Positions 3,001-22,194 of a DNA stretch of 22,194 nt are shown here, piece by piece. Position 1 is the first letter of the stretch, and each line of letters opens with the position of its first letter. This DNA comes from a virus. The translations under genes were made by a program, and so were the position numbers. The stretch covers positions 1 to 22,194 of IMG/VR virus record IMGVR_UViG_3300027687_000084, one strand, 5' to 3'. The notes below the pieces were generated by a model, which saw nothing but the letters and a program-made list of their open reading frames with translations, was not told the origin of the DNA and searched no databases.

Positions 3001-6000
3001 ATAATCCTCTTTGTATAGCCCAATTTTCAAATATATCATATTGTGCTTCTTCTTTGCCAAGATTTGCACTTGTAAAGGTTTTAGCCGCAGTAATTGTTCC
3101 TTTTGTTGCTAAGAAACTAGAATACAATCCTGCTTGTGATATGTCATCTAAGTTTAGATTTTGCATATATTGCCTTGGACGAAAACCTATTAGTCCTAGT
3201 CCTAATAGTGTTGCATCGCCTTCGAGGTTAGCAGTTTGTATATCATAGTTGTCTTGTAGTTCGTCTGCTTTAGTCGCTAAGTTTGGCAATAGTCCTTTTT
3301 GTATTCTATTGTAATCACTTTTTGTCCAATCTGCAAATACAAATGTTTCACTAGGCGGAAGTAATGTAGTTGCACTCCAATAAGAATTCTTGTATTCTAT
3401 AATCTGACCTTTGGTGTAGGAAACGTTAGGTTCCCACTCTTTGATATTATCTTGGTTAAGTATAAAACCTTGAGCGTCTAATGTGCCATTCCAGTCATAT
3501 ACAGTAAATCCATTTATCAACAATCTATTTTGTCTAGCACCGGTTACTGGTTGGTACATCAAGTCGTTAAAAATACTGGTATTGTCAAAAACAATTATGT
3601 GTTCGTAAGATGTAAATCTGGCAAGAAGGTAACTGAAAGCGTTACTGTTTAATCCAATCAGCTTCAATTCATTATCTAGTCTTTCAACTGCATAGTCTTC
3701 AGCAAACACTGGTTGAAAGTTTTGATTAAGAAGTATATCATTGATATTTTCATTTGCTAAACTTTCAACTACACTGAAAGGTTGACTTAATTTTAAAACA
3801 TTTGCTGCTGGGTTAAGGTTTAATACACTACCAACAGTCCAAGACTGTCCTACCCAGTATATAAACTCTTGAGCCATCTGTGTCCAGTTAATTATTAAAT
3901 CATTCTCTGTACTATCAAAAGTCAAACCTTGTCTCTCTAAAAGTGTCCCATAACTTACCAAAAAGTCAACAACTGCACTTTGACTTGTAAACTCATAGCC
4001 ATAAGGCACTTGAATCACGTCATTGCTAAATGTTTGTGGCACACGTGCAGTAAATCCATTAACTGTAAAAGTTGAGAACGTTCCGGCAGCGGTACTTTTT
4101 AAGATGTTAAAATACGGTTTTGCAGTTGAATATCCTGCGACACTCCAACCGCTAACCGTTCTTTGTACTATTACTGCTGAATACTGTATTTCATTGAAAC
4201 TTGGGTTTTTGTATAGTGAAAGTTGATAACTTTCATCTGGTAATAACAGACTAGCATTTAAACTATTTGGTGATGACTTTTCAGAAAATATTTTTAAATA
4301 TCCTTGGTCACTAAATGCTGCCATTCTGTAACACAAACGTATGTCAAGATTTGCTAGTCTGTTTGTAAGCAGAGTTGTACTATCTAATCCAGAGACTCGA
4401 TTGTAGTCAACGATCATGTTGATGTAACTATTTTTTGCAACTCCATCACCATAGATCTGGAGTTCAGTTGCATTTATTCTATATCTTTTGTTATACAACC
4501 ATTGTTTAACACTAGTATCGTATTTCCATAAATCTCTATCAGCAAACCAACTGAAGTATTTTGCTGGCTTTGTTAATGCAAGTAATCTTTGTATTGCAAA
4601 AGGATAATAACTGCTTCGTCTCCAAGCAGTTTGTGTAGGAGCATAATCTCCTGCTACCCACGACTTTTTAAAACTGTTTATATCATAATTTCCAACAATG
4701 CTAACCATTGGATCAACCAAGTTGCCTTGAGAATCAGTTGGCAAACATTCTAAAAGTTGTGGACGTACATATTGTGTTCTGATTACATCACCGGTTGGAT
4801 AAGCAATCTTGCCATCTGCCATATCTTGCCATAGTACTGTGTTACCACTGGTATATGGTGCAGGTCCATATGTTATATTCCACCATGTTGGCTTTATGCT
4901 TAGTCCAACCATTTCCCATGGACGTGTATCAGGAGCATCTGTATCGTAAAGTTGGAAATAAATTCCTCTCCAGAATCCTAGTAACGGAAGGTTATCTAAC
5001 CTGTTGGCACTTTGACTATAGTTCCAGGTAAATCCGTTGTTGGCATCATAGGTCTGATCTTTAAAAGGTACCCTCTGCGTTCCTACCCAAGACAGAAAAC
5101 TTATATTTAAAATATTATTAATTTCTGTAAGTGTATAGTCTGTAGTTCTAAACTGTCCAGGAATAACATCAACTGCTTGTATTGGTGGAAAATACTTTTC
5201 TGTTGCAGTCAATTTGATGTTGTTAAAACATCTTTTTTCAAATTCTAATAATACACCATTTCTATAATCGCCTGCTTCAAATGCAACTGTTAAACTACCA
5301 TCATGTCCTTGTATTACATTTGTTGGAGTTACATAGGTATTGTCTAAAAACATCTGTGGCTTATAAACTTGATACAATCCTAGCATACTCGGACTTGCTG
5401 GAATATAACTTCCGTAAGTAGCCGCGTACTCGTTTATAGTAATAATATCGCCAATTGCCAGTGTGATATTTTCAATGTTGATTGTAATTCTTGGACCATC
5501 TGTTGCAACTGTATATTCGTCTCCATCGCCAACAAGTTGTGTCTGTACTCCTGTTGCTTTTGGAGTTAGATATACCAATAATCCTTTATAGTTTGCACTA
5601 GTAAAATCATAACTGTAAAGTGTATCAAATGTGTATGTAGTAATTGGACTGACTGTGTATGTAGTTGTTTCAAAAACAGTTCCACTCGGAATAGCATCAC
5701 TCCAGTAAAAAGAAGTAAGAGAAGTTTTTCCTGCATTTACTGCAATAAGTGTTTCATCGAGTATTTGTGCTGATGTCTTTGATTCCCAATCATTGTTTGC
5801 AACATAATCTAAAATTTTATTTTTAGTTTTATTGTATTCTGATGCATTAAAATCTAATGCACGAAAATATTCAAACTGTCTTTCGTTTATAAAAGGAGTA
5901 GTAAGTGTTAGTGGTGCACTGTGCTGAAGTATAAGATCACCATAAGGGACAACATTTCCCAAATCATGTATGTTGTTTGCACCGTGTATTTTACCAGAGA

Positions 6001-8812: not shown

Positions 8813-8824
8813 AGTTTATACTAC
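8812..8824 (-). repeat. 13-bp repeat GTAGTATAAACTA over the gp6 stop, copy 2
   Basis: Exact copy of the 13-mer at 12268-12280. It covers the gp6 stop TAA, the 3-bp spacer and the A of the giant gene's ATG. Its recurrence at two gene ends may be chance in AT-rich DNA or a shared processing or regulatory signal. Confidence 0.5.
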
Positions 8825-11800
8825 TCCACTGTTTGATGCAGTTCTAAGTTGACTACTGGTTAATGCATCTATAACTTCTACATCATTCACAGTTGCCGCA
8901 TTAGTAAATATTTCATTTGACTGTGAACGTATCTCATACAAATCTCCAAAAGATTTAAGAGGATTTGTTGGAACAAGTACAACAGTACTAATTATACTTC
9001 CGAGTTGTTCATGCAAGTAACTACTTAATTCACTAAAGAAGAAAGTATCACCAAAGTCCCAATTGTCAATAGTAAAGTATTGATTGATTGCATTTATCAC
9101 TTGACTTTTTATTTCACTTGTGCTAACTGTACTAGTTGCGTTCTTTACACATTTAATTGTTGCTCTAAGTTCAGTTGCTGCTTTTGTGCCAAATAAAGGT
9201 TTAAACGTCAAACTGTTTAGTATAATATTATCACTGATCATCTTGTATTGATCAAGTGTGCTATACGCAGTAGTAAGTTCTTCAATTGTTGGTTGAGCTG
9301 GTTTAGGCACTGTTCCAGTTGTATCTCGAATGTAGTTTTGATATGCAGTATAATATGCTTGGGTAAGCAAAAATATATCAATTATGTTGGTTGTACCTGG
9401 ATCAATACGTCTGCTCAATGGAGCATTGTGTCTATACTGAAAGTTCAAGTCTTGTCTACCAACAAATGTCTGATAACCACTTACTTCAGAAATAGTTCTT
9501 ACACCATCATATGCAACTGTTAGTTTGTAAAACTTTTTATCTGTGTATGCATAGAAAACCTGTGCATCATTATATTCACTTTTAACTAATTCAATAGCAT
9601 CTTTGGTTGCAAGTGTGCCGTTTACTATGCCGCTTGCTAGAGGAATATATCTTTCTAGGTTATCAAAATCAATTGTTTGTTGTAGATAGATTCTTTTGCT
9701 ATTTGGATTTGTGTCCGGTGCAACCAATGTTTCAAAATAATCTGGATTATCCGGAACCCCGTCGTTGTCTGAATCTTTGTATGAAATCCTTACTCTAAAA
9801 TCGTCAATGAAACCATCAGATTCAACCGGTTGCCCAATAATATCTAGTATCTCATCACTGTTTAAAGGTGTGCTTGTATCTGGGGCATTGTTTGTTTTTA
9901 AAACATTGATAAAATCGTTTATTACTTTTCCAGTTTTTGGATCATAAACTTTCTGTGTTCCATCATAAAAGAAACGAGTCTCTAGTACACTTGCCCAATA
10001 CCTGTCTAAACTTCTTGAACTGACAGTATAGGTTACACCATCTGTTTGAAAGTCAACTAACCACGAGTTATCCAAGCCTGTTCCGCTTGTGTTCTGTGCA
10101 TTTCCTAAACTAAAAGTAACACTGCTATCTAAGTTGGTTGAAGTAATCACATACCAAACTTGGTTTAGGTTATCATATCCAAGTCCAAAGTTTCTGTAAA
10201 GTTCAATATTGTTTCTCATGACAGTTTCAATGGCAGTTGGTAAATCTGTAACAAAGTTTACAATTACTTGTGTTGGCACTGCAAGTGATGGGATAAAATT
10301 GTTTAATGTCACTGGTCCTGTTCCATCAGCATTGTTTCCAACGCCAAAGTTTGTGCCATCAAGTTCTAGTGCAGTAACAGTTGCCCATAGTTCAGTTTTA
10401 TCACCAGGAAGTGTTGCAGATCCTACCTTGAGTCTATTAAGATTATTAAAGACATAACCAGCTGGTGGAACAAACTTAATTAACCCACCTTGTGCAATAT
10501 ATTTTTTGTTATCAGACGCTTGCGGACCAACCGGTGCTGGTGCACCACTTGCAACAAATTTAAAAAACCCTGTAGTTTCGTTGTTTGATGTTGTACTTTG
10601 CGACCATTCTAAATTCAGTGTTGTTAGACTTGGACGAAGGAAGTTTTCATAGTAAAACTCCTGCATTCCTCTACTGGAAAGCACAGGCTCTACTTGGTTT
10701 ATAATAACATCTGTGATGTCATTTTGATCAATAAATGTAAATGTAAAACTAGGTACTTCTGTATTTTCGTATACCATTCCATCAGATGCAAACACGTTGG
10801 TACTTGAATATTTTCCAGTGATGTCAACTAAATCCAAGTATCTACTAGTACCAATTGAGCTGCGATTAACTGCCTTAGACTTGATTATAGTTGAATATAG
10901 TGTATATGGAAAATTGTTGTAGTCTTCGCCATTAACCATTCTGTTTTGCGTGTAATATCTTGCTGGTGCTCTTTGCTTGATATCGTTAATATTTTCTCTA
11001 CTGGCAGCATTGCTAACAGGTTGTGTCAATGCACAGGTAAGAGTGAGTGTTTCGTTTCTTCCAGTTTTTGAAACATAACCAATACTAAGAGTAACATTTT
11101 GCATTTCGTCTGGGTTGATGATATAGTTCAAACCATTAGATGAACGCACATAAGTTCTGAAAGTGCCAACTGGAATACTGCTAAACACTCCGTCACCAAA
11201 GTTCAAATTAATTTGATCATTTGTTCTTGAAGTAATAGTAAAATACCTGCGTTGTTCTGGAGTTAGCTCTTCGGTGGAACCTGCATAGATATTTTCAACC
11301 TTTTTCCACTCGCTTTGAATTATGTTCTGTGCATTCAGTTGGTATAGCCATGTATCTTCGTTGTTGATTCCTTCAATGTTGACATTAACAACTCTGTTGC
11401 TTATTCTTTCACCAAGATTAAACTGTTGATCTTGTAAACTACCTTGTTTGAAGTAAAAAAAGTAACCAGTGTTTGCACTAGCGTAACCTTGTTTATCGTT
11501 TCTATATAGTATATTCAGAGCGCCGTTTGGTGCTGGTGCTGGTTCATACAAATATGTTTCATCTAAACTTGTTGCACTCACTGCTTCAAATGTCATGTTA
11601 GTTCCATTTACAATTTGACTAAATGGTATAACTGGTAAAAATCCCTGTATTAAATTTAATGTGTATTCATCTGTTTGCACACCGAGTAATGTTTGGCTAT
11701 TACCCGGACGCCCAAATCTTTGGCTTCCGTTTAATGCCGCATTAACAATCACTGTAAACTGTTCTAGCCAATTTGCATTTGTTGTATCGTTCCAGTTAAC

Positions 11801-12223
11801 TGTGATATTTGAAAGGTTTACACCAGTAAAGTCAATTACACCTTCTGTAGTGCTTATACTTTGTACTTTGATAAAACCTTGTGCCGCCGTATTTCGTTTT
11901 GGAGTATAACTTACTAGTTCAGCAAGACGTACTACACTGTCTCGTCTTTCAGCAGTATCAATGAAGTTTTCTCTAGTGTTTAAATCGTTACGGAAACTAC
12001 CTGCTTGTCCCATAAACGCCATAACATCTAGCAGAGCAATAAACTCACTTGATTCAATATAGTCGTTAAAACTTTCAGGATAGTATAAACGAATGTAGTC
12101 TATAAAGCTCTTGCGAAGTGTTTCAAAGTCATAACTCTGAAAGTCTGCTTCACGATATGTTTGGTAGATTCTTTTCCAATCTTCAACACCAAATATGCTG
12201 GTTTGTCTTGTAGTTTTAGCCAT
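8816..12223 (-). CDS. 6: Baseplate wedge protein gp6
   Basis: 1135 residues, much longer than T4 gp6 (about 660). The N-terminus (residues 1-120) has the gp6 hallmark: DFETLRKSFIDYIRLYYPES at 32-51, then FNDYIESSEFIALLDVMAFM and a RENFIDTAERRDSVVRLAEL helix. The C-terminus ends in the typical SNEIFTNAATVND segment near residue 1103. In T4, gp6 dimers form the continuous wedge ring around the hub and bind gp25 and gp53, consistent with its neighbours here. The middle is expanded and strand-rich, and includes a DxDxDG loop at about 816-828. ATG at 12223 is preceded by AAGGA nine bases upstream and by a CATAAATA late-promoter box, so gp6 probably opens a new transcription unit. The stop TAA lies 3 bp before the giant gene. 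Confidence 0.93.
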   Translation of the reverse strand: MAKTTRQTSIFGVEDWKRIYQTYREADFQSYDFETLRKSFIDYIRLYYPESFNDYIESSEFIALLDVMAFMGQAGSFRNDLNTRENFIDTAERRDSVVRLAELVSYTPKRNTAAQGFIKVQSISTTEGVIDFTGVNLSNITVNWNDTTNANWLEQFTVIVNAALNGSQRFGRPGNSQTLLGVQTDEYTLNLIQGFLPVIPFSQIVNGTNMTFEAVSATSLDETYLYEPAPAPNGALNILYRNDKQGYASANTGYFFYFKQGSLQDQQFNLGERISNRVVNVNIEGINNEDTWLYQLNAQNIIQSEWKKVENIYAGSTEELTPEQRRYFTITSRTNDQINLNFGDGVFSSIPVGTFRTYVRSSNGLNYIINPDEMQNVTLSIGYVSKTGRNETLTLTCALTQPVSNAASRENINDIKQRAPARYYTQNRMVNGEDYNNFPYTLYSTIIKSKAVNRSSIGTSRYLDLVDITGKYSSTNVFASDGMVYENTEVPSFTFTFIDQNDITDVIINQVEPVLSSRGMQEFYYENFLRPSLTTLNLEWSQSTTSNNETTGFFKFVASGAPAPVGPQASDNKKYIAQGGLIKFVPPAGYVFNNLNRLKVGSATLPGDKTELWATVTALELDGTNFGVGNNADGTGPVTLNNFIPSLAVPTQVIVNFVTDLPTAIETVMRNNIELYRNFGLGYDNLNQVWYVITSTNLDSSVTFSLGNAQNTSGTGLDNSWLVDFQTDGVTYTVSSRSLDRYWASVLETRFFYDGTQKVYDPKTGKVINDFINVLKTNNAPDTSTPLNSDEILDIIGQPVESDGFIDDFRVRISYKDSDNDGVPDNPDYFETLVAPDTNPNSKRIYLQQTIDFDNLERYIPLASGIVNGTLATKDAIELVKSEYNDAQVFYAYTDKKFYKLTVAYDGVRTISEVSGYQTFVGRQDLNFQYRHNAPLSRRIDPGTTNIIDIFLLTQAYYTAYQNYIRDTTGTVPKPAQPTIEELTTAYSTLDQYKMISDNIILNSLTFKPLFGTKAATELRATIKCVKNATSTVSTSEIKSQVINAINQYFTIDNWDFGDTFFFSELSSYLHEQLGSIISTVVLVPTNPLKSFGDLYEIRSQSNEIFTNAATVNDVEVIDALTSSQLRTASNSGVV
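9737..9776 (-). other. Calcium-loop motif DSDNDGVPDNPD inside gp6
   Basis: Codons around residues 816-828 of gp6 read DSDNDGVPDNPD, a DxDxDG loop of the type that binds calcium in EF-hand-like, dockerin and thrombospondin type-3 repeats. A single loop is visible, flanked by strand-rich sequence (FRVRISYK before, YFETLVAPD after). That it binds metal is inferred from the motif only. Confidence 0.55.
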
Positions 12224-12267: not shown

Positions 12268-12280
12268 TAGTTTATACTAC
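12268..12280 (-). repeat. 13-bp repeat GTAGTATAAACTA over the gp25 stop, copy 1
   Basis: The minus strand reads GTAGTATAAACTA across the TAG stop of gp25. The identical 13-mer occurs at 8812-8824 across the gp6 stop. Here one more base pair extends the inverted repeat to GTAGT-ATAA-ACTAC (12267-12280), a possible 5-bp hairpin. No U-run follows, so it is not called a terminator. Confidence 0.5.
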
Positions 12281-12657
12281 ACGTCTGAGTAAGCGGCTCG
12301 CATTGTTTCATTATTAAAGAATATGTTTAGAAGTTCGCCTTGTTGCCCACTTACTGTGTCAACTTCAAGTTCAATTAGGATTCCGTTTTCTTGTGGATAA
12401 ACATTTACATCTGCCACTTGTATTCTTGGGTCTTGTGCAACCACACGTTGTATTTCTTTAATGATTGCTTTGTTTGTTGGTTCCCCTTGTGGTTCAAAAA
12501 TAAGTGTGAACATTGTTGTACCCACATTAGGACGCCCTGGCATTTCACCTTGACGTATAGTCAATGCATTCAATAGATCACGCTTGATCAAGTCAAAGTC
12601 TGTGACTGTATAGTTTTTGTACTGATTAATTGTACTATATCCGGTGAACGTTGCCAT
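12277..12657 (-). CDS. 25: Baseplate wedge protein gp25
   Basis: 126 residues, close to T4 gp25 (132). The GPW/gp25 family pattern is clear: RQGEMPGRPNVGT at residues 35-47 (the conserved loop after the first helix), the LIFEP strand-turn at 52-56, an amphipathic helix NKAIIKEIQRVVAQDPRI, and the terminal strands VNVYPQENGILIELEV. In T4, gp25 forms a heterotrimeric helical bundle with two gp6 chains, clamps the wedge to the sheath end and is needed for sheath initiation. The gene lies just before gp6, as functional pairing predicts. ATG at 12657 follows gp5 after 20 bp; the best ribosome site is a weak AGGA 13 bp upstream, so translation may depend partly on coupling. Confidence 0.93.
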   Translation of the reverse strand: MATFTGYSTINQYKNYTVTDFDLIKRDLLNALTIRQGEMPGRPNVGTTMFTLIFEPQGEPTNKAIIKEIQRVVAQDPRIQVADVNVYPQENGILIELEVDTVSGQQGELLNIFFNNETMRAAYSDV

Positions 12658-12677: not shown

Positions 12678-14915
12678 TTAGGTGCTTATTACACCATTGA
12701 CTTTTTTGCTTGCAACAACGGTCTCTAATGCAGTATCAATTGATGTACGAACAGTTGTGCCAACCACTCCTCCACTACCAGTAGAAAATCCTTGTATCTC
12801 GTTGCTGAGCTTTTGTTGTGCTAGTTGTATAGAATACTGTCCGCCTCTAACCAATTCACTCATTTGGTTACTGGTTATAGGAGAACTGTTTGCTCCAGCA
12901 AATGTTTCGCCAAGTGTTGAGGCTCCGTCCTGCCATTTTTTCACTGCATCTACACCAAATTTACTTGCTCCGCTGATAAGTCCACCAAGCGATGCTTCGT
13001 CTTCAAGTCCAGTTACTATTCCTGCATTTTGCAGTTCACCTAAGCCCTTGTTGAATAAATCAGTTTTAGTAATATCTTGCAGTGCTTCGTTGTTTAGGAA
13101 ATCACTTACTCCATTGATTCCTTGAGAACCAGTCCACACACTGGCACTGCTTAGAACAGTGTTTAGATCAGCAGTAGCATCTTTGAGAAAGAACTCAGCA
13201 GTACCTGGTTTAAGTAATCCGCCTTTTTCTAATTCTGTTGCACTGAATCCAAACTTGCCAACACCAAAATCATTTGAAATTTCATTAGAGGCTTGTGCCA
13301 CAAGTTTACTTGATTGAGCTACCATACTTGTAACTTTTTCAGGTGGTATCTTGCCAACGTTTGTAGTTGCCTGAGCTTGTGTTTCGTAGTCTGATTCGGT
13401 TACAGTATCAATTTCTGTTGATTCTGCTTTGGTAACTGCTTCTTGTGTTTTAGGATCAAGTGGTACTTGTTCAGCAGGCGATTCTAAACTGGTACTGGTG
13501 TTTACGCCAGTTCCTCTGTTCGCATAAGGTTCGTGCGTTGGTGCTCGAGTCACAATAGTTTCAATTGCACCCGGATCCGTTATCCAACCTTGTTGAGGTT
13601 CAAATTTTGTATCTGCTAGACGTAGTTTTGGAATATCAACTGTTTTACTAACTGGTGGTGCTGAACCACTGTTTAACTTTATACAACCTGCTTCTAAGGA
13701 TAAGCCGGTACCGGCGCCCCATCCTCCGGTTCTACTGTTTAAATTCAGTGCACCATCGCTTTTTATTCCCACTGAGCTTTTGCTATACGCCAAGATACTA
13801 TTTGTTCCAGTGAGACTTAGACTACCAGTTTCCAAACTCATAGCACGTTTCGCAAAAATATTTACACTGCCAAGTTCGCTTGCTATATTGATATTACGAT
13901 CAGCATGCATGTTAAGTTCACCAGCACTTCTAATATTCAAACTGTTTGAAGCATATAGATCGATTGTTCCTTCGTTACCTAGTTCAATCCAAGTCTGCCC
14001 ATTTGCATGCATTATATGTATAGTTTGTTTGCCCACAGTATCGTTCATCATTATTTGATGACCGGTACTTGTTCTTATTCTTGTTAGATTATCTTCACCT
14101 GCTAGATCACCATCATCCATTACGATACTGTGGCCACCTTTACGTGCAATTACTGTTGTTTCATTTGCCTGTAGCGTACTGCTTGCTACCTTGGCAGCGA
14201 TCTGTGCATCAGTTAGTCCACCTTGATATACAGGTCTTCCGGCAGTGCTTATTCCAAATACAGTACTAGGAGATTCTCTTTGACTGTTTGAACTTATTGG
14301 TCCAATAAGAGGATCTGCTATAACACCTTGTGACAACATCTGTCCTGCTAGTACACTGTGTACTGGCTTTATTTCATCAAAGAATCTTGGATTTTCTGCT
14401 ATTGCATCATTGGCATTGTTTATTTCAACCACTGGTAATTTTGCTTTGTTTGCAAATAGAGGTGAACCACTATCGTCAATGTACTTTTTACTACTACCAA
14501 TTGCTGGAACCATATGATTTAGACCAGGAGATATTGGCATACCTAAGTAGTATCCTTCGTTTGGATCTCCATTTGCAAAGAAACAAATTACTTTGGTTCC
14601 AAGATCAGGTGGTGTGCCAAAGAATCCATACGCATGGTTGTTACCAGTAAAACTTCCTGGACCAGTTGTTTGTTGGGCACTCTGTTGTGTGTAGCCGTAA
14701 TAAGGAGAAATATAACTTACTGTACGCCATAGATCTGTGTTGTTTTTATCGTCTCCAGAAATATACTCAATATAAACTTGTAACCTGCCAGATCTAGTAG
14801 GATCAATGTTATTAGTTACTTCACCAATAAACGGTCCTGATTCAGCTGGTGTCCCGCCTTTTGTAGTTTTATAGGCTTTAGGTGTGCCTTTACTTCTTTG
14901 ATAATTTTCTGACAT
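12678..14915 (-). CDS. 5: Baseplate hub/spike protein gp5, without lysozyme domain
   Basis: 745 residues. The N-terminal gp5-type OB-fold covers roughly residues 25-135: GPFIGEV at 27-33, DPTRSGRLQVYI at 38-49, then FFGTPPDLGTKVICFFANGD and YYLGMPISPGL. Residues 250-413 are a VgrG/gp5-like spike: RKGGHSIVMDDGD, TSTGHQIMMNDT, HANGQTWIELGNEGTIDLYA, then short strand repeats of the LNIRSAGELNMHADRNINIA type that build a triple-stranded needle. The T4 lysozyme domain normally between them is absent; about 115 linker residues (roughly 135-250) stand in its place, as in many marine relatives. The C-terminal 330 residues are Ser/Thr/Ala-rich, predicted largely helical, and unrecognised. AAGGAAAA directly before the ATG is a good ribosome site, 9 bp after the upstream gene. 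Confidence 0.88.
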   Translation of the reverse strand: MSENYQRSKGTPKAYKTTKGGTPAESGPFIGEVTNNIDPTRSGRLQVYIEYISGDDKNNTDLWRTVSYISPYYGYTQQSAQQTTGPGSFTGNNHAYGFFGTPPDLGTKVICFFANGDPNEGYYLGMPISPGLNHMVPAIGSSKKYIDDSGSPLFANKAKLPVVEINNANDAIAENPRFFDEIKPVHSVLAGQMLSQGVIADPLIGPISSNSQRESPSTVFGISTAGRPVYQGGLTDAQIAAKVASSTLQANETTVIARKGGHSIVMDDGDLAGEDNLTRIRTSTGHQIMMNDTVGKQTIHIMHANGQTWIELGNEGTIDLYASNSLNIRSAGELNMHADRNINIASELGSVNIFAKRAMSLETGSLSLTGTNSILAYSKSSVGIKSDGALNLNSRTGGWGAGTGLSLEAGCIKLNSGSAPPVSKTVDIPKLRLADTKFEPQQGWITDPGAIETIVTRAPTHEPYANRGTGVNTSTSLESPAEQVPLDPKTQEAVTKAESTEIDTVTESDYETQAQATTNVGKIPPEKVTSMVAQSSKLVAQASNEISNDFGVGKFGFSATELEKGGLLKPGTAEFFLKDATADLNTVLSSASVWTGSQGINGVSDFLNNEALQDITKTDLFNKGLGELQNAGIVTGLEDEASLGGLISGASKFGVDAVKKWQDGASTLGETFAGANSSPITSNQMSELVRGGQYSIQLAQQKLSNEIQGFSTGSGGVVGTTVRTSIDTALETVVASKKVNGVIST

Positions 14916-14924
14916 TAATTTTCC

Positions 14925-17900
14925 TTATTTAAAAGCAGAACTTGCGTTTGTACCGCCACCTTGAAATCCTGTTGACTTTGCACCTCTAGCTTGTGCTGCC
15001 TCTGACCGTGCTCTTGCTTCTCTGCGTCTCTTTGCAAATAAACTTTCTTGCATCGGGCTAGTCTTTGTTCCAGCATCGTCACTTACAGTATTACTTCCAG
15101 GTTTAGGTTGTACTGGAGGTGTTTTTGGAAAACCTCCTGGTGGTGTCCATTCTGCTTCTCCCGGCGTAACATCTGCACCATCTGTGTAATTTACAGTTGA
15201 ATCTGGCAACTTTGCAATGCGTGTTGTTGTTTCATTATTTACTAGAGCACTGCTATACGGCTCTTTCTTTTGAGTATTGGTTTTAGATCCGTTAATAGTC
15301 TCAGCAGTTTTAAAGTTTCCTGCTCTTGGATCTTGACCAGCAGTTGGTTGAAATTGCCTATTACTGCTACGAGCCCCAGGTGGAATAACATTCTTGCTAG
15401 GTCTTACTGATTCACCTGCTCCGCCAAATGCATCTAATCCTGGATCTTCAACAACGTTCTTCTCAACTTGTTTTTGTTTTGGACTATCAGTTGCAATATC
15501 AAAGTTTCTAATAGTACCCATTAGTCTTTGTGTGAACTTTCCTTCCTTGAAGTAATTTACCACTGACTGTGTGCAGTATACTTCAGCGAATTGTGCTAGA
15601 TTCTTCTCGCCTGTGATTTTACTGTCACTGTTGTTTGCATTCACAGGAGTTTCACCAGTTGTCATATCATAGTCGGTTACCCTATTGAATCGCACTTCGT
15701 AAAGTACTTCACCAGATGCACTGTTTACACTACCGTCTGGTTCAAATGCAGTGAGATTTGGAGTACTATAAAATACCTCACTCTGTTGAATAAAGTCTGG
15801 ATCACCTACAATTTCTATTGTTGATCGAGCTACATCCACTGGTGCATACAATCGACCTGCTAATTGGGCCGCTGGTCTGGTGCTATTGCCTTTACCACCT
15901 TGTGTACTTTCATCTGGACTTGATTGAAAAAATCTTTTCTCAGCATAACGTGCTCCACTACCAGTTGGTTGTTCTTCTGTTTTTCCATCATTACCTATCA
16001 TAGTAAGGTAGTTTGAATTTGCTTGAATTTCAAAATTTATAACTTCTGTGTTTAATCCAGTAAACCAGTAGTTGTATATTTTATGAGCCCCTCTATACGT
16101 TGCTGGCGGAAAATAAGGCGATCGTGGTGTATTGATTTGATAACGAGATATACGATATGTAATTTGATAAGCATAATCGTTACGCTTTGAATCATATGTT
16201 GTTGGTACTGCTGTCTGAGTAACTCTATACCATTGCACTGTTTTCACTGGCTTATTAACAATCTCTTTGTTGGTAACCTCATCAAATGCTATTGTTTGTT
16301 GTGCAGTGATGTAGGTTGAATTTTTCATTATTTGGTCGATAAGTTGTACAATCTGTGTGCCAGCACTTATGCTATACTCTTTGGTTTCCTTGTCAAGGAA
16401 GTTTTTTTCCATGTTTCTCTGTTCATTAGGATTTCCAGATCTCTGCATTGGAGCTTTTGCTTTGTCAACCTTGCCTTGCTTACGCATCTTAGCATCAATC
16501 ATACCAGGCACATCTTCAATTAAGATGATATATTCATCCGCAACTTTTTGGGCATCTATCTTGACTAGCTCTTTTTGATGCTTGTTGAGAGCATCAGCCA
16601 ATCCTGACGTAACAACACGATCTACTAGTCCGTGTTTGCCTGCACGTTGTTGTGCAACTGTGGTTGTTTCTTCAGTGACAATATTTTGATTTGGTGGGCC
16701 ACCTGCTGCTGAGGATGTGACTATCGGCACTAGGGGTACTAATTCACTATTGCCATTCAACAATTTTTTAACACTCGACGCACTAAGTTGAAAGTTAAAC
16801 GGAATAGTGGCTCTGGCAGTTGAATACCCAACTTGCATCTGTGGTGTTGTACATTTTACATCATACATCACTGCTTGATTGTTAATCCTATAAGTGATAT
16901 CTGAAAACTGAAAAGGAATAAACTTTTCTACTAGTGCATCTGAATCACTTGTGGTTTCTATTTCGCCTTGAGGTAGATCTCTTTTGGTCACTAAATTACC
17001 AAATTCATCATAACCATAAAAGCGTATAACCATAAGAAAAGTCTGTGAGTAAACATTTACATCAGGCATCCTTTCATGCTCTGTTATGGCATTTGCCAAT
17101 CTTTCAAGAAAAGTTATTCCTTGTGGTTCCATAATTTTAAACGATAGTTTGGCAACATTATGTGGAGACATGGCTCCTTGTGTTCCCATTATACTTTCAA
17201 ATTCAATATCTTCTATATAAAAGTCTAGATCAAAGAACTTGTTGCGTTGTTCCGGTTTTGCTCCACCAGACTGTAGTATAAGTTGTCTAGTTGGCAGTGT
17301 CTTTCTATCAGTGTATAGGAACTTGATATACTCATCTTGATTCATCATGTAGATGCTTGCAGAATATGTTTGACTTGCAAGACCTAGTAACGGATTTGGT
17401 TGTGCAACAATAGGCTTTTCAAATTCTGCAGCCACAGCAGTTCTACCTTCAACTCCATCTGCATTTATAGCATCTCCGGTATTGTTTCTATTAGCTGATA
17501 GAGCATCATCTCCGGGTGCTACCTGTACATTGTTGCTACTACCACTGTTGTTGTTATCACCACTTAGTGGTGTAACTGCACTGCCTGTTGACGAGCTTAC
17601 TGCGGTTGTTTGTGTTTGTCCAATTTTTTTTACAGGAGCACCTCCTCCAACTGTACTGGATGATCCTGATCCTTTGAGATCGCCTAGTTGTTCATTGTTT
17701 CCACCTGAAAGTGCAGTTGTTCTTGCATTTGTTGATTTAACACTACTAGGAAGAAATAAAGAAAGCTCAGGTGCTTCTCCTTCAATTGTTTTAATAATTT
17801 CACTATCATCTATTGACGGTGTAGTGTATCTTGCAGTTTCTCTAGTATAAATTTTTTCGCTATTAACAATTGTACCACTACTGTCTTTGGTAATGTTCTC

Positions 17901-18239
17901 TCTCACTGCTGTTTTCTGTGTGTTTGAAAATGCCTGTGTTTGGATACCATTCATTGTAGAGGTCATTGTGGTTACTTCAACTTTGTTTTTTGTAATAAGT
18001 GTAGTAACTCTAGTCTGTCCTGGATCTCCATTTAATCCAGCATTTTGCTTTTGCAAGTTGTCAAGTTCAGAAAATTGGCTGGTTAGTTCGTTGTTTACTG
18101 TATTCCAATCACTGTCAATTTGATTCCACGAAGCACCTCCCGATACTAAGTTTTCAAGGTTCTGCACCTTTGTCTTGGTTTGGTTTATTTTTAATTGTAC
18201 CGACTGTCTTGCAACACCGAGTTGTGCAGAGGTTGTCAT
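14925..18239 (-). CDS. Large baseplate/virion structural protein, candidate gp27-type hub
   Basis: 1104 residues. Residues 10-85 are predicted coiled coil, followed by Ser/Thr/Asn-rich low complexity to about 270. Folded segments follow: SIYMMNQDEYIKFLY near 294, SGGAKPEQRNKFFDLDFY near 324, LMVIRFYGYDEFGNLV near 400, and YNYWFTGLNTEVINFEIQAN near 722. The last 200 residues are disordered Pro/Ser/Gly sequence containing EDPGLDAFG at 931-939 and ending FQGGGTNASSAFK. I associate this family with marine T4-like phages, where it is usually just called a structural protein. It lies immediately upstream of gp5, and no gp27 is recognisable here; in tailed phages the gp5 partner is the hub, so a gp27-equivalent role is inferred from position. 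The ATG is 1 bp past the gp53 stop, indicating translational coupling; no strong ribosome site is seen. Confidence 0.85.
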   Translation of the reverse strand: MTTSAQLGVARQSVQLKINQTKTKVQNLENLVSGGASWNQIDSDWNTVNNELTSQFSELDNLQKQNAGLNGDPGQTRVTTLITKNKVEVTTMTSTMNGIQTQAFSNTQKTAVRENITKDSSGTIVNSEKIYTRETARYTTPSIDDSEIIKTIEGEAPELSLFLPSSVKSTNARTTALSGGNNEQLGDLKGSGSSSTVGGGAPVKKIGQTQTTAVSSSTGSAVTPLSGDNNNSGSSNNVQVAPGDDALSANRNNTGDAINADGVEGRTAVAAEFEKPIVAQPNPLLGLASQTYSASIYMMNQDEYIKFLYTDRKTLPTRQLILQSGGAKPEQRNKFFDLDFYIEDIEFESIMGTQGAMSPHNVAKLSFKIMEPQGITFLERLANAITEHERMPDVNVYSQTFLMVIRFYGYDEFGNLVTKRDLPQGEIETTSDSDALVEKFIPFQFSDITYRINNQAVMYDVKCTTPQMQVGYSTARATIPFNFQLSASSVKKLLNGNSELVPLVPIVTSSAAGGPPNQNIVTEETTTVAQQRAGKHGLVDRVVTSGLADALNKHQKELVKIDAQKVADEYIILIEDVPGMIDAKMRKQGKVDKAKAPMQRSGNPNEQRNMEKNFLDKETKEYSISAGTQIVQLIDQIMKNSTYITAQQTIAFDEVTNKEIVNKPVKTVQWYRVTQTAVPTTYDSKRNDYAYQITYRISRYQINTPRSPYFPPATYRGAHKIYNYWFTGLNTEVINFEIQANSNYLTMIGNDGKTEEQPTGSGARYAEKRFFQSSPDESTQGGKGNSTRPAAQLAGRLYAPVDVARSTIEIVGDPDFIQQSEVFYSTPNLTAFEPDGSVNSASGEVLYEVRFNRVTDYDMTTGETPVNANNSDSKITGEKNLAQFAEVYCTQSVVNYFKEGKFTQRLMGTIRNFDIATDSPKQKQVEKNVVEDPGLDAFGGAGESVRPSKNVIPPGARSSNRQFQPTAGQDPRAGNFKTAETINGSKTNTQKKEPYSSALVNNETTTRIAKLPDSTVNYTDGADVTPGEAEWTPPGGFPKTPPVQPKPGSNTVSDDAGTKTSPMQESLFAKRRREARARSEAAQARGAKSTGFQGGGTNASSAFK
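15423..15449 (-). other. Motif EDPGLDAFG in the hub candidate (shared with the gp48-like protein)
   Basis: Residues 931-939 of the 1104-aa protein read EDPGLDAFG, identical to two nine-residue segments in the gp48-like protein (20070-20096 and 20232-20258). The codons differ synonymously between copies. It sits in a disordered, Pro/Gly-rich tail, as short binding motifs usually do. Confidence 0.75.
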
Positions 18240-18240
18240 A

Positions 18241-18546
18241 TTAGATACCTAATACTGTTTGTAACGTTGACTTCTGTGGTAGATAGATTGTGGTTCCAGT
18301 AACAAAATCAAACAGAGGATCTGGCAATTGATTTGGGTTACGCATGGCAAATACCCACCAAAGGTTTGAATCTTCATATAGGTCAAAAGCCAAGAGATCA
18401 GGACGTAGGTTATATGTTTCATTGATGGTCATCGACAAGTCGTCTACCAACTTTGGAATAGGGCGTTCGATCATTAATCCAAGGTACTGATTGTTGATAA
18501 CTGGCGTATCAAAATACGGACTGGTGTTTGAATAATTAGTAGCCAT
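18241..18546 (-). CDS. 53: Baseplate wedge protein gp53
   Basis: 101 residues from ATG at 18546; a GTG two codons upstream (18552) is possible but less likely. The central LysM-like segment, YNLRPDLLAFDLYEDSNLWW followed by VFAMRNPNQLPDPLFDF and the GTTIYLPQ strand, matches the gp53 wedge family of marine T4-like phages. It is shorter than T4 gp53 (about 196). In T4, gp53 clamps neighbouring gp6-gp25-gp7 wedges together to close the ring around the hub. The ATG overlaps the upstream stop as TAATG, with AAGGGA about 8 bp before it, so translation is coupled to the gp48-like gene. The next gene starts 1 bp after the stop. Confidence 0.82.
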   Translation of the reverse strand: MATNYSNTSPYFDTPVINNQYLGLMIERPIPKLVDDLSMTINETYNLRPDLLAFDLYEDSNLWWVFAMRNPNQLPDPLFDFVTGTTIYLPQKSTLQTVLGI

Positions 18547-21416
18547 TACCACATTCCCTTCTTGATTAAGTTACCGTTTGCGTATTCACGTAGGCTAAAT
18601 TGTTGACTTACCTGTTGCCTGCTTACAATTGGGTTCAACATAAGAGATATAGACATTTTGGTTGGAACATAGGTTGCTCCTTTTGTACCAAGTTTATCTA
18701 TGCCTAATTTGGTTGGTTCAGAACCCGATTTAAGCGGTTCTTTTTTCCCGTTTATAGCATTAGTAGTCGCAGTTTGTAACCTTGATAAACTGGAAAAGTT
18801 TCCGTTTGTTACACTGGTTGCCAATGGCTTTTTATATTGCAACTGTCCATCACGTTGTATCTGTTTGCTTCTCGCTCGTATATAGTTAACATCAGGAGGA
18901 AGGTTGTAATTAAATTCACTTATCACACATGGTGATTCGTTAAACTGGTATTCACCTAATCCTGTAAGGTATAACAAGGGAGGTGGTGAACCTCTTTGTG
19001 CATCTTGTCCGTAGAACATTTTGCTTGCACTTTTTAAGAAGTGTATAACTGCAAGTAGGTATTCTGCTTCAACTGTATCCTGAGCAGTAAAATCAGCATT
19101 CAATGATATCTGACCTACATTTGAGCCTTTGTAGAAATAGTGCTGATAATTTGAATGAGTTGGTGAATATGCTTGGTATTCTGCTCTGTACTGTATATCA
19201 ATAGTTGGAGTATAGGGAAATATTATTCCGTCAGTTTCTGTAAGTGGTGCAAGTATACCCGGGTCAGGTGCTTGATACAAGTAGGTTGCCTGCGGAGCTA
19301 ATCGGAGCTTAACACGCCAGTCGCCATCTGCATTCTTAACACCAGATGCTTCACGCATTTCACTAACAGTTTGTTGTTGTTGTGCTTTTGCTTTTAATGC
19401 TTGTGCATCAAGGGCACTTTGTTGTGCTTGAGTGATTGCTGCCTGTTCAACTCCATCAATACCTGTGCCTTCGGCACCGTCGCCTATATCAGCAACTGGA
19501 TCATCTCCGACTAGACTTTCACCATCATTGTCTACACGATCTTCAGGTGCTAGTATTGGGTCACCAAACTCATCAAATTGTGCTGCCTCTGGATCACCAA
19601 AGTCATCAACACCAAAAGGATTTACCTCTTCTGGTGATTGTATCGGGTCACCGAACTCATCAAACTGTGCAGCTTCAGGGTCGCCAAAATCATCAACACC
19701 AAAAGGATTTACTTCTTCTGGTGCATTTATAGGATCCCCGAAGTCATCAAATTGTGCAACTTCTGGATCTCCAAAATCGTCTACGCCAAAAGGATTTACT
19801 TCATCGGGTGAGTCGGTTGTTGCAAAGTCACTAAAGTCCTCTTCGCCAAAGTTATCGTCGCTATAATCAGCAAAGTCGTCCACTTGTGCTGGATTACGTG
19901 TTGGATCACCAAAGTCATCGACTTGTGCACCAAAGTCGTTATCGCTATAGTCAGCAAAATCATCAACTTGTGCAGGAGTGTTTATCTCTCCAAAATCATC
20001 TACTTGTGCACCAAAGTCATTGTTGGTATAGCCAGCAAAGTCGTCTACCTGTGCAGGTGCTGGTCCAGGACCAAATGCATCAAGTCCAGGATCTTCTGTG
20101 CCAAAGTCGTTATTGCTATAGTCAGCAAAGTCATCCACTTGAGCAGGTGCTTGAAACTCAGCAAAGTCGTCCACCTGTGCTGGTGATTGATACTCAGCAA
20201 AATCATCTACCTGTGCTGGCGCCGGACCTGGGCCAAATGCGTCAAGTCCAGGGTCTTCTGTTCCAAAGTCATTGTTGCTATAACCGCCAAAATCGTCTAC
20301 TTGTGCAGGAGTATTAATTTCTGCAAAATCATCTACTTGTGCAGGTGCTTGATATTCTGCGAAGTCATCTACCTGTGCGGGTGCTTGAAATTCAGCAAAA
20401 TCATCTACTTGTGCAGGTGCTTGATATTCAGCAAAATCATCAACCGGAGTAACGTTTCTACTTGGGCCACCAAAGTCATCTACTTCTGTAATACCAGTTC
20501 CACCAAAATCATCTACTTGTGATATTTCCTGTGCTGGTCTTGCTGGTGGAGGTTCAGGAGCAGTAATATCTGGTCTTGGTGTAGGCGTTGGTACATCTGC
20601 TCTGTTTGCTCTAGCAATATCATCAGCAGTTCTAAAATCTTGGTCATAGTCGTCGCCGGGTAATTCATTGTCAGTTTCATAATCTTGAGGTGGACTCTGT
20701 GGTGGTTGAAATGGCTGTGCCTGTTCTACACCAGGACGTCTTGTACTAGGTGGAATTGGTGTAACTTCTCTAAAACTTTCACCATAGGCATCAGTAAAAT
20801 CTACATCATCATCTTGTGGTTGAACAACCGGTGTTGGTATCGGAGTTGCCTGACGATAATTCTCACCATATGCGTCTGTAAAATCAACGTCTGAATCTTG
20901 TACTTGTACTGGTCTTGCTGGTGGCGGTGCTGGAAAAGGATCTGGTGCTGGTGCTGGATCACGACCGCCGTTTCCAAATGCTTGACCTGTTATAGTTCCT
21001 CCGCCTTGAAATGACGTACCCGAACCTGTTGTGTTTGTTGCAGTCTGCGAACTAGTGGGACTTGAAACAACCGGAGTTGGTGGTGTTGTATATGCCCTAC
21101 CAGTAAATGGATTAATACTTGGTGTTGAGCTAACGCTGGATACAGTTGCAGGTGGAAGATCGTTGCCAGCAAATGCTGATCCAGATCCAACTGTATTCCT
21201 TGGTGTGACTGTTTTATTTTGAGTGGTTGTTGCTCTTGCACTTGTTACTTGACCAAAAGCTGTGTTTGTAGCCGGAGTTCCAACTTTGTTTATTGCATAA
21301 TTAGGTAAATCAGCACGTGGTATTCCGGTCAGTTGTGCAATTCTTTCAAGCGGAATGCCAGGAAAGGCCTGCTGATATCCTCTTGCCAGTTTTGCGTCTG
21401 CTTCGTTATATGCCAT
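18546..21416 (-). CDS. 48: gp48-like baseplate tail-tube cap protein with long acidic repeat insertion
   Basis: 956 residues against about 364 for T4 gp48. The folded part is residues 700-956: VKLRLAPQATYLYQAP at 701, then DGIIFPYTPTIDIQYRA, MFYGQDAQRGSPPPLLYL near 800, and FNESPCVISEFNYNLPPDV. These segments look like the tube-cap/tube-junction family of marine T4-like phages; gp48 is favoured because gp53 follows, but gp54 is not excluded. Residues 1-45 form a small helical segment (LARGYQQAFPGIPLERIAQL) that may be a separate binding module. Between them lie about 600 Pro/Gly/Asp-rich residues, predicted disordered, holding two 28-residue repeats, about 18 VDDF motifs, and three to four 29-residue repeats. 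ATG at 21416 has AGGAGA 4 bp upstream and a late-promoter box. It is first in its operon. Confidence 0.8.
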   Translation of the reverse strand: MAYNEADAKLARGYQQAFPGIPLERIAQLTGIPRADLPNYAINKVGTPATNTAFGQVTSARATTTQNKTVTPRNTVGSGSAFAGNDLPPATVSSVSSTPSINPFTGRAYTTPPTPVVSSPTSSQTATNTTGSGTSFQGGGTITGQAFGNGGRDPAPAPDPFPAPPPARPVQVQDSDVDFTDAYGENYRQATPIPTPVVQPQDDDVDFTDAYGESFREVTPIPPSTRRPGVEQAQPFQPPQSPPQDYETDNELPGDDYDQDFRTADDIARANRADVPTPTPRPDITAPEPPPARPAQEISQVDDFGGTGITEVDDFGGPSRNVTPVDDFAEYQAPAQVDDFAEFQAPAQVDDFAEYQAPAQVDDFAEINTPAQVDDFGGYSNNDFGTEDPGLDAFGPGPAPAQVDDFAEYQSPAQVDDFAEFQAPAQVDDFADYSNNDFGTEDPGLDAFGPGPAPAQVDDFAGYTNNDFGAQVDDFGEINTPAQVDDFADYSDNDFGAQVDDFGDPTRNPAQVDDFADYSDDNFGEEDFSDFATTDSPDEVNPFGVDDFGDPEVAQFDDFGDPINAPEEVNPFGVDDFGDPEAAQFDEFGDPIQSPEEVNPFGVDDFGDPEAAQFDEFGDPILAPEDRVDNDGESLVGDDPVADIGDGAEGTGIDGVEQAAITQAQQSALDAQALKAKAQQQQTVSEMREASGVKNADGDWRVKLRLAPQATYLYQAPDPGILAPLTETDGIIFPYTPTIDIQYRAEYQAYSPTHSNYQHYFYKGSNVGQISLNADFTAQDTVEAEYLLAVIHFLKSASKMFYGQDAQRGSPPPLLYLTGLGEYQFNESPCVISEFNYNLPPDVNYIRARSKQIQRDGQLQYKKPLATSVTNGNFSSLSRLQTATTNAINGKKEPLKSGSEPTKLGIDKLGTKGATYVPTKMSISLMLNPIVSRQQVSQQFSLREYANGNLIKKGMW
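19540..19800 (-). repeat. 87-bp (29-residue) tandem repeats in the gp48-like gene
   Basis: Equivalent bases recur at 19618, 19705 and 19792, exactly 87 bp apart. Each unit encodes EEVNPFGVDDFGDPEAAQF followed by D(E/D)FGDPI and a three-residue linker. The leftmost unit is degenerate at its end. Most differences between units are synonymous (for example GGT/GGG, GAC/GAT, CCG/CCT in FGDP). Confidence 0.9.
20070..20096 (-). other. Motif EDPGLDAFG, gp48-like copy 1
   Basis: Residues 441-449 of the gp48-like protein, followed by PGPAPAQVDDF. The peptide is identical to the hub candidate's motif at 15423-15449. Confidence 0.75.
20232..20258 (-). other. Motif EDPGLDAFG, gp48-like copy 2
   Basis: Residues 387-395 of the gp48-like protein, again preceded by NNDFGT and followed by PGPAPAQVDDF. 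The DNA differs from the other copies at third codon positions only. Confidence 0.75.
20753..20897 (-). repeat. Two 84-bp (28-residue) repeats, VDFTDAYGE type
   Basis: Two successive units encode VDFTDAYGENYRQATPIP and VDFTDAYGESFREVTPIP, 28 residues apart and joined by a Pro/Val/Gln linker. They precede the VDDF array in the same protein and share the acidic-aromatic character. Confidence 0.85.
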
Positions 21417-21522: not shown

Positions 21523-22194
21523 ATGGCAGTGTTTAAAGCACCAAGAAAAGTTAACTATCTTAACAACAGAGATATTCTAAAAGAAATTCACAAGAGCAAA
21601 AGCACTTACTGTTCATTCCTTGAAAAAGAGTATGCACAATATGATATAATTGTTCCTAGTGTTGACAAGATTAATCAGCGTAGTGTTGCAGAAGCGAGAC
21701 GTAACAAAGCTGATAGAATCAAAAGACTAACTGGTGAAGTTGTTGATCCTGTAAAACTAAGCAACCAAGAACTGGTATTTCGTGTTACTTGTTGGGAACA
21801 TATTCCAATGGTTCCAAAGAAACTAACCAAAGCACAAAAAAAGAAAAAGAGCAAACTTGAAGAACTATTAGAAATGGACGATGTTAACATCGAAGATGAT
21901 GGCTTGCAAGATCTAATTACTGAAACTAAACAAGATCTAAACTATGTTAAACTGAACTTTCCTCCTTTCTGGCACTACATGATTGATGACAACAAAGTTC
22001 CATACATAGTTGGCAAAAGTCACTGGATTGGTGGAATGGAAAACGGATACTTTTCAAAAGACCACGGAAAGATGACAGACAAACTAGCACACATGTTTAT
22101 CAAACTTTGTGAACGTTATGCAACACGTAGTAATTGGCGTGGATACACCTACAATGAAGAAATGCGTGGTACTGCATTGCTACAACTCAGTCAA
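21523..22194 (+). CDS. 55: gp55-like late-transcription sigma factor (3' end outside window)
   Basis: The first 224 codons are in the window with no stop. Residues 9-23 (KVNYLNNRDILKEIH) resemble the N-terminal motif of T4 gp55 (NYVNNKELLQAI type). Residues 184-224 (LAHMFIKLCERYATRSNW, then YTYNEEMRGTALLQL) resemble gp55/sigma region 2, which binds the polymerase beta-prime coiled coil and recognises the late -10 box. In T4 these two elements are nearly adjacent; here about 140 residues separate them, including a Lys-rich stretch at 98-114 (KKLTKAQKKKKSK), an acidic stretch at 115-135 and a conserved-looking FPPFWHYMI...VGKSHWIGG block. The gene runs divergently from the structural genes it should activate. 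The identification rests on remembered family motifs and lacks the C-terminal sliding-clamp-binding tail, which lies outside the window. Confidence 0.72.
   Translation, partial: MAVFKAPRKVNYLNNRDILKEIHKSKSTYCSFLEKEYAQYDIIVPSVDKINQRSVAEARRNKADRIKRLTGEVVDPVKLSNQELVFRVTCWEHIPMVPKKLTKAQKKKKSKLEELLEMDDVNIEDDGLQDLITETKQDLNYVKLNFPPFWHYMIDDNKVPYIVGKSHWIGGMENGYFSKDHGKMTDKLAHMFIKLCERYATRSNWRGYTYNEEMRGTALLQLSQ

What the first reader, a model, noticed from the sequence alone, without database searches (positions are those of the whole stretch)
19540..20520. Eighteen VDDF motifs in an acidic disordered arm on the tube cap
About 330 residues (roughly 298-626) are made of acidic-aromatic units, in two repeat families (36 bp and 87 bp). 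Tail-tube caps are compact in T4, so a long multivalent arm here is unexpected. Possible roles: a scaffold that recruits many copies of one baseplate partner, a phase-separating assembly hub, or an acidic mimic that binds a host protein.
Basis: partly seen in the sequence, partly recalled or inferred. Interest (0 to 1): 0.65.

Follow-up and report, generated by a model that had tools for sequence, protein, structure and literature searches.

The report
Swappable sticky-motif arms on phage hub
A marine jumbo phage's tail-tube starter protein carries a long acidic arm with eighteen VDDF motifs, and the same small motifs turn up on the loose ends of other central tail-hub proteins in other phages, swapped like cassettes, which suggests a shared docking tag whose partner is unknown.

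Summary
In detail: gene 18546-21416 (-) encodes 956 aa with exactly 18 VDDF motifs (residues 301-603) in an acidic array (residues 298-626: 89 D/E, 2 K/R, 38 F). Its C-terminal 258 residues fold like the contractile-tail tube initiator (T4 gp48, Pvc7), so 'tube cap' stands. The array belongs to one clade of uncultured marine phages (5-18 copies) and is kept by purifying selection. Sister clades carry another acidic linker or a lytic-transglycosylase domain in the same slot; cultured Rak2-like phages are armless.

The main new result: the arm is built from portable cassettes. PGLDAFG sits in the arm and in the neighbouring gp27-like hub, nowhere else in a 328-kb relative. In another lineage three VDDF units sit on the gp5 spike's C-terminus, 92% DNA-identical to a cap arm, where a strain with a 99.9% identical gp5 core has a different acidic-aromatic cassette. 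ETAAFEAE[FY]D, found in 32 of 2.9 million viral contigs, lies only at gp5 C-termini or in cap arms.

Best reading: interchangeable multivalent docking tags of the central hub; partner unknown (inferred). Rivals: host-facing ligand, electrostatic tether, freely spreading low-complexity sequence.

The parts
18546..21416 (-). Tube-initiator (cap) gene, 956 aa: tip 1-58, linker 59-297, VDDF array 298-626, post-array 627-658, anchor helices 659-698, tube domain 699-956
21243..21416 (-). Conserved N-terminal tip (residues 1-58), shared by the VDDF, SLT and L021/L030 clades
20526..21242 (-). Variable Pro/Ser/Thr-rich linker (residues 59-297); its FQGGGT is shared with the hub C-terminus
19539..20525 (-). 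VDDF array (residues 298-626), 18 VDDF, net charge -87
19540..19811 (-). Three 87-bp repeats (VNPFGVDDFGDPEAAQFDEFGDPIxxPE)
20232..20258 (-). EDPGLDAFG motif, first copy in the arm (residues 387-395)
20070..20096 (-). EDPGLDAFG motif, second copy in the arm (residues 441-449)
19488..19520 (-). ESLVGDDPVAD motif after the array (residues 633-643); V[GD]DDPVAD also occurs in gp5 tails of another lineage
19323..19442 (-). Segment before the tube domain, modelled as two helices at low confidence (residues 659-698); ends in a conserved QQT...R...GDWRV
18549..19322 (-). Tube-initiator domain (residues 699-956)
18241..18552 (-). gp53-like baseplate wedge protein
14925..18239 (-). gp27-like hub protein, 1104 aa; core 290-912 has the gp27/VgrG/Mu gp44 fold
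15423..15449 (-). EDPGLDAFG in the disordered tail of the hub protein (residues 931-939)
14928..15047 (-). Lys/Arg-rich C-terminal extension of the hub protein (residues 1065-1104), predicted helix 1067-1084, ending FQGGGTNASSAFK
12678..14915 (-). gp5-like spike; no cassette here, but a close relative (L002 phage) gained one at exactly this C-terminus

Best explanation
The arm is a multivalent docking arm. It is made of short acidic-aromatic linear motifs (QVDDF[GAS], [DP]GLDAFGG, ETAAFEAEFD, V[GD]DDPVAD, NGFGNxQGGEF) that work as interchangeable tags for the central hub of a T4-like contractile tail. The tags sit on disordered ends of whichever hub protein carries them: the N-terminus of the tube initiator, the C-terminal tail of the gp27-like hub, or the C-terminus of the gp5 spike. 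SHOWN: the motifs, their selection, their near-restriction to these proteins, and their movement between proteins and phages. INFERRED: they bind one common partner that handles all three hub proteins. The likeliest partner is a hub-assembly factor or scaffold of the kind T4 supplies with gp51, gp26, gp28 and gp29, or a neighbouring wedge protein; many weak sites raise avidity. In the window phage, six cap subunits (hexamer assumed from the family) would offer about 108 VDDF sites.
For: Array kept by selection with saturated synonymous change: pooled pS 0.74 / pN 0.19 between 36-bp units; ratio 0.10 for 87-bp units. VDDF occurs in one protein of a 328-kb relative; PGLDAFG only in the cap and the adjacent hub. 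At the hub site where others have PGLDAFG, L020 has EEEDFSDLDG, which resembles another motif of the arm. In lineage B (armless cap) three VDDF units lie on the gp5 C-terminus, 92% DNA-identical over 89 nt to a cap arm; strain L205 (gp5 core 99.93% identical, flanks matching on both sides) has NNGFGNAQGGEFDTT x2 there. Clade A arms and lineage B tails share 21 blocks of 7 or more identical residues in 5,575 aa, against 0 in 32,101 aa of control bodies and 0.19 after shuffling. ETAAFEAE[FY]D: 32 contigs of 2.9 million, 30 at gp5 C-termini (including two short fragments assigned by sequence) and 2 in cap arms. The L002 phage gained it at the gp5 C-terminus where its relatives end VNGVIST. LDAFGG also recurs in hub-operon proteins of other marine phages.
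Against: No partner is identified and no binding is shown. Cultured relatives (121Q, RaK2, PA5oct) do without any arm, so the function is not essential to the machine. Quick cassette turnover between near-identical strains could also mean host-driven diversification, or no sequence-specific partner at all. Lineage B tails are related to each other, so the 21 blocks come down to three motif types. Motif sharing between cap arm and hub across all lineages is only suggestive (permutation p = 0.067).
Confidence: 0.42

Rival explanations
1. Host-facing ligand. The tags lie on the part of the tail that enters the periplasm and bind an envelope or peptidoglycan-associated host protein during injection; cassettes are swapped as tail-fibre tips are, under host pressure.
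For: In the sister clade L022-L028 the same slot holds an SLT lytic transglycosylase (Pfam E 2.8e-18; the only SLT found among three large related records), so this arm can carry a cell-wall-directed domain. gp5 C-termini are at the distal spike. Two strains 98% identical over 4.7 kb differ by a whole cassette.
Against: No host protein with a related array. Array pN/pS is as low as that of the tube domain in the closest full-length pair, which is not the sign of diversifying selection. The motif is also in the gp27-like hub linker.
Confidence: 0.24
2. Electrostatic tether inside the hub. The acidic arm wraps onto the basic C-terminal tail of the neighbouring gp27-like hub protein and holds the two rings together before contraction.
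For: All VDDF-clade hub proteins that could be read have a 43-54-residue extension with net charge +6 to +11 in the last 45 residues; no other lineage in the first set exceeds +3, and the sisters end at SDDAG. It is the most basic 40-residue stretch of the window's baseplate proteins other than the very large one, which ties at +6. Cap and hub families are ring neighbours in solved tails (established for T4 gp48 and gp27).
Against: One origin of the VDDF clade (100/99 support), so the association is a single event. Lineage B hub tails are basic (+3 to +6) with or without VDDF. It does not explain why motif identity, not just charge, is conserved and shared.
Confidence: 0.17
3. Spacer or selfish low-complexity sequence. 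Repeats spread by slippage and recombination between disordered ends because these tolerate insertions; composition alone is kept.
For: Copy number varies 5-18 and linker modules turn over; the cassette swap is bordered by short identities in the motif itself (LVDD, FGGT).
Against: Strong purifying selection on the VDDF core with free synonymous change. The motifs are nearly confined to hub proteins although many other phage proteins have disordered regions.
Confidence: 0.12
4. Phase-separating assembly hub: aromatic stickers in an acidic chain condense hub proteins at the assembly site.
For: Regular F/Y stickers every 3-13 residues in an acidic chain.
Against: Net charge -87 without balancing basic residues in the array disfavours self-condensation (general knowledge); single-copy motifs in hub and gp5 tails are too few to condense alone.
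Confidence: 0.05

Closest known systems
Tube initiator family of contractile tails (T4 gp48, Pvc7/Afp adaptor, Mu gp43, cyanophage A-1(L) initiators)
   Same: Same fold of the C-terminal domain (VIA Z 9.7-10.4); same place in the operon before gp53, gp27-like hub, gp5 and gp25. Mu gp43 also carries an added domain that ties the hub to the wedges (PMC11915804).
   Different: Known extra parts are folded (LysM, helix-rich) and follow the tube domain; here the extra part is N-terminal, acidic and repetitive, with exchangeable motifs.
Rak2-like jumbo phages (121Q gp590, RaK2, GAP32, PA5oct, Atu_ph07)
   Same: Same gene order and homologous cap domain (25-39% identity); the annotation of PA5oct records MS detection of the cap in virions.
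Short linear motif (SLiM) docking arms, e.g. bacterial SSB acidic tips or endocytic DPF/FxDxF arms (from memory, a lead only)
   Same: Acidic-aromatic peptide motifs, repeated in disordered tails, that gather partners by avidity.
   Different: Here they are shared between three different virion hub proteins and exchanged between phages; no partner is known.
Swapped tail-fibre tip cassettes (from memory)
   Same: Horizontal replacement of a terminal module on an otherwise near-identical structural protein.
   Different: On the central hub and spike, not on the receptor-binding fibres; modules are 10-90 residues and disordered.

Membership tests
Tube initiator / tail-tube cap (gp48-like) | Tube-like beta-sandwich domain | tested here: met
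   AlphaFold2 model (mean pLDDT 67) matches Pvc7 6j0n_b Z 10.4, P1 9ay5_G 10.2, A-1(L) 8kea_R 10.1, T4 5iv5_BE (residue range fits gp48) 9.7
Tube initiator / tail-tube cap (gp48-like) | Sequence similarity to T4 gp48 or gp54 | tested here: inconclusive
   hhalign found no alignment of note; expected at this distance
Tube initiator / tail-tube cap (gp48-like) | Gene neighbourhood of gp53, gp27-like hub, gp5, gp25, gp6 | tested here: met
Tube initiator / tail-tube cap (gp48-like) | Hexamer that starts tube polymerisation | not testable with these tools
   no virion or structure
Multivalent SLiM docking arm | Repeated short motif under selection in a disordered region | tested here: met
   disorder itself inferred from composition
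Multivalent SLiM docking arm | Same motif in other proteins of the same assembly | tested here: met
   PGLDAFG cap and hub; ETAAFEAE[FY]D gp5 and cap; VDDF cap and gp5
Multivalent SLiM docking arm | Identified binding partner | not testable with these tools
   needs binding experiments
FG-type cohesive mesh / condensate | Self-association | not testable with these tools
   no experiment; net charge -87 argues against

The most novel reading that the evidence does not exclude
Large marine contractile phages keep a common pool of hub tags: short acidic-aromatic motif cassettes that are recombined among the disordered ends of the tube initiator, the gp27-like hub and the gp5 spike, within and between phage lineages. 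They make up a modular docking code for one hub partner that has not been described.
Probability: 0.45. Interest if true: 0.8.

Novelty: new variant of a known kind. Interest (0 to 1): 0.62.

Why it matters
Baseplate hubs are seen as compact, conserved machines. Here their central proteins carry long disordered arms whose motif cassettes are exchanged between proteins and phages while the fold beneath stays the same. If the tags bind one partner, that partner is a missing piece of hub assembly or of envelope passage in a large group of uncultured marine phages, and the naturally swapped strain pair (L101/L205) says which segment to test. It also shows that a tube initiator can take an SLT domain in the same slot.

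Tried and rejected
Sequence links of the cap to T4 gp48/gp54 and of the hub to gp27: none; fold comparison was needed. Pfam and PDB sequence search on the cap: nothing. Chance origin of VDDF: rejected. Recent slippage: rejected, copies are saturated at silent sites. Motif sharing between cap arm and hub as a general rule in all lineages: 4 of 22 pairs against 1.6 expected, p = 0.067, not claimed. Co-occurrence of PGLDAFG in arm and hub inside the clade: 7 both, 1 and 1 single, 3 neither by hand (excluding duplicates and truncated arms); too few and not independent. Assembly chimera for L101: rejected, both flanks and the downstream gp25 match L205. Host relative of the array: none. Cultured phage with the cassettes: none seen. 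Papers on VDDF in phages: none.

Full report
WHAT IS THERE. The gene at 18546-21416 (minus strand, 956 aa) lies first in a baseplate operon: cap, gp53-like (18241-18552), a 1104-aa hub protein (14925-18239), gp5-like (12678-14915), gp25 (12277-12657), gp6-like (8816-12223), with a late sigma factor divergent at 21523. The window is a 22-kb virus record. The order is the same in 121Q, RaK2, GAP32, PA5oct and Munch. VDDF occurs exactly 18 times, residues 301-603; shuffles give 0.1 on average. The array has 36-, 81-, 87- and 162-bp periods.

WHAT THE PROTEIN IS. Alignment A1 of 46 relatives gave a model (mean pLDDT 67) whose tube domain matches Pvc7, the AFP adaptor, P1, A-1(L) and T4 tube-initiator chains (the T4 chain's residue range, 58-358, fits gp48). 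The next protein, 1104 aa, has a core (290-912) of the gp27/VgrG/Mu gp44 fold, an N-terminal helical bundle, a disordered tail 928-1060 and a basic helix 1067-1084. So cap and hub are the two ring neighbours of a T4-like hub (contact known for T4, inferred here).

THE ARM IN RELATIVES. 79 loci were fetched. VDDF arms (5-18 copies) form one clade, 100/99 support. Their nearest kin either have a different acidic linker (L021, L030) or an SLT transglycosylase (L022-L028; Pfam E 2.8e-18) between the same conserved tip (residues 1-58) and the same pre-domain segment. More distant freshwater lineages have other lineage-specific linkers; cultured enterobacterial, Pseudomonas, Salicola and Vibrio phages have no comparable arm. 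The slot is therefore variable, the tip and base are kept.

SELECTION. Between the 17 repeat copies found by DNA alone, pooled pS is 0.74 and pN 0.19, with the second D and the F never changed; for the 87-bp copies pN/pS is 0.10. Between window and L002 the array has pN/pS 0.15, the tube domain 0.16, the linker before it 0.49. Over all clade pairs the array is at 0.31, the tube domain at 0.17, tip and linkers at 0.45-0.56. Alignment of repeats is uncertain, so these are rough, but neutral decay is excluded.

THE MOTIFS ARE NOT SPECIAL TO THE CAP. EDPGLDAFG is in the arm twice and in the hub's disordered tail. In the 328-kb relative G001, PGLDAFG is only in these two proteins and the array only in the cap. 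At the same hub site L020 has EEEDFSDLDG, similar to the arm's EEDFSDF. A scan with the array alone returned 17 loci: all but one are caps; the exception, L101, is another phage with the same operon, a 284-aa cap without VDDF, and three VDDF units at the C-terminus of gp5. Its 89-nt segment is 92% identical to a cap arm of clade A (L019), while strain L205, 98.3% identical over 4.7 kb and 99.93% in the gp5 core, carries NNGFGNAQGGEFDTT twice in that place; flanks on both sides match. This is a recent cassette exchange.

MORE CASSETTES. Clade A arms and lineage B tails share 21 exact blocks of 7 residues or more, of three kinds (VDDF array, ETAAFEAEFDAQ, V[GD]DDPVAD), against none in six times as much control sequence. 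ETAAFEAE[FY]D was then sought in all 2.9 million viral contigs: 32 hits, 28 classed as gp5 C-termini (7-15 residues from the end) and 2 as cap arms by script; the two unclassed are short fragments with the same gp5 C-terminal sequence. In the L002 phage this motif was added to the gp5 C-terminus exactly where the window and its relatives stop. In lineage B, NGFGNxQGGEFDTT is in both gp5 and hub tails of one genome. LDAFGG appears at cap N-termini (L212, L226), in hub proteins (L329, L332, L391) and in gp5 tails (L233, L394) of other marine phages; L394 has LDAFGG and ETAEFEAEFD together. That last scan was noisy and truncated.

MECHANISM. Shown: repetition, selection, near-restriction to central hub proteins, and exchange among them. 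Inferred: the motifs bind something common to these proteins. A hub-assembly factor or neighbouring wedge would explain why any hub protein may carry the tag and why copy number is free. A host envelope partner would explain the SLT in the slot and the swaps. An acidic-basic tether to the hub tail would explain the basic extension that arose with the VDDF clade, but that is one event and lineage B blurs it. I put the tag model first at 0.42.

LIMITS. Metagenomic fragments, no host, no virion data. Disorder is judged from composition. Hexamer and ring contact come from the family, not from this phage. Lineage B members are related, so counts are not independent events. Only open-access papers were searched, so absence of a description is not proof of novelty.

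Noticed in passing
L022:7311-8906 (and L023-L028): Tube initiator with an SLT lytic transglycosylase domain (PF01464) in the slot of the arm; SLT was the only one found in a 300-kb record and absent from two related large records.
   Followed up: partly
14925-18239: The gp27-like hub protein has an N-terminal helical bundle (residues 1-115) absent from T4 gp27, then 150 low-confidence residues.
   Followed up: partly
14928-15047: Basic C-terminal extension of the hub protein in all VDDF-clade members read, absent from the nearest sisters.
   Followed up: yes
L332:4507-5946, L345:3707-4939, L402:5478-6629: An extra 384-480 aa protein between hub and gp5 in other marine phages, carrying up to four LDAFGG motifs; in L345 it ends with a GFGSSQYGEFG stretch like the lineage B cassette.
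   Followed up: partly
12678-14915: gp5-like spike has no lysozyme domain in Pfam, unlike cultured Rak2-like phages; a stand-alone Phage_lysozyme hit lies elsewhere in the L002 phage (G001:129288-129677).
   Followed up: partly
2-8812: A very large protein cut by the window end (over 2,937 aa; 4,490 aa in the L002 phage), net acidic, next to gp6; probably a wedge protein.
   Followed up: no
19432-20522 (+): Several antisense open frames of 98-144 aa run through the repeat array; most likely a by-product of its composition.
   Followed up: no
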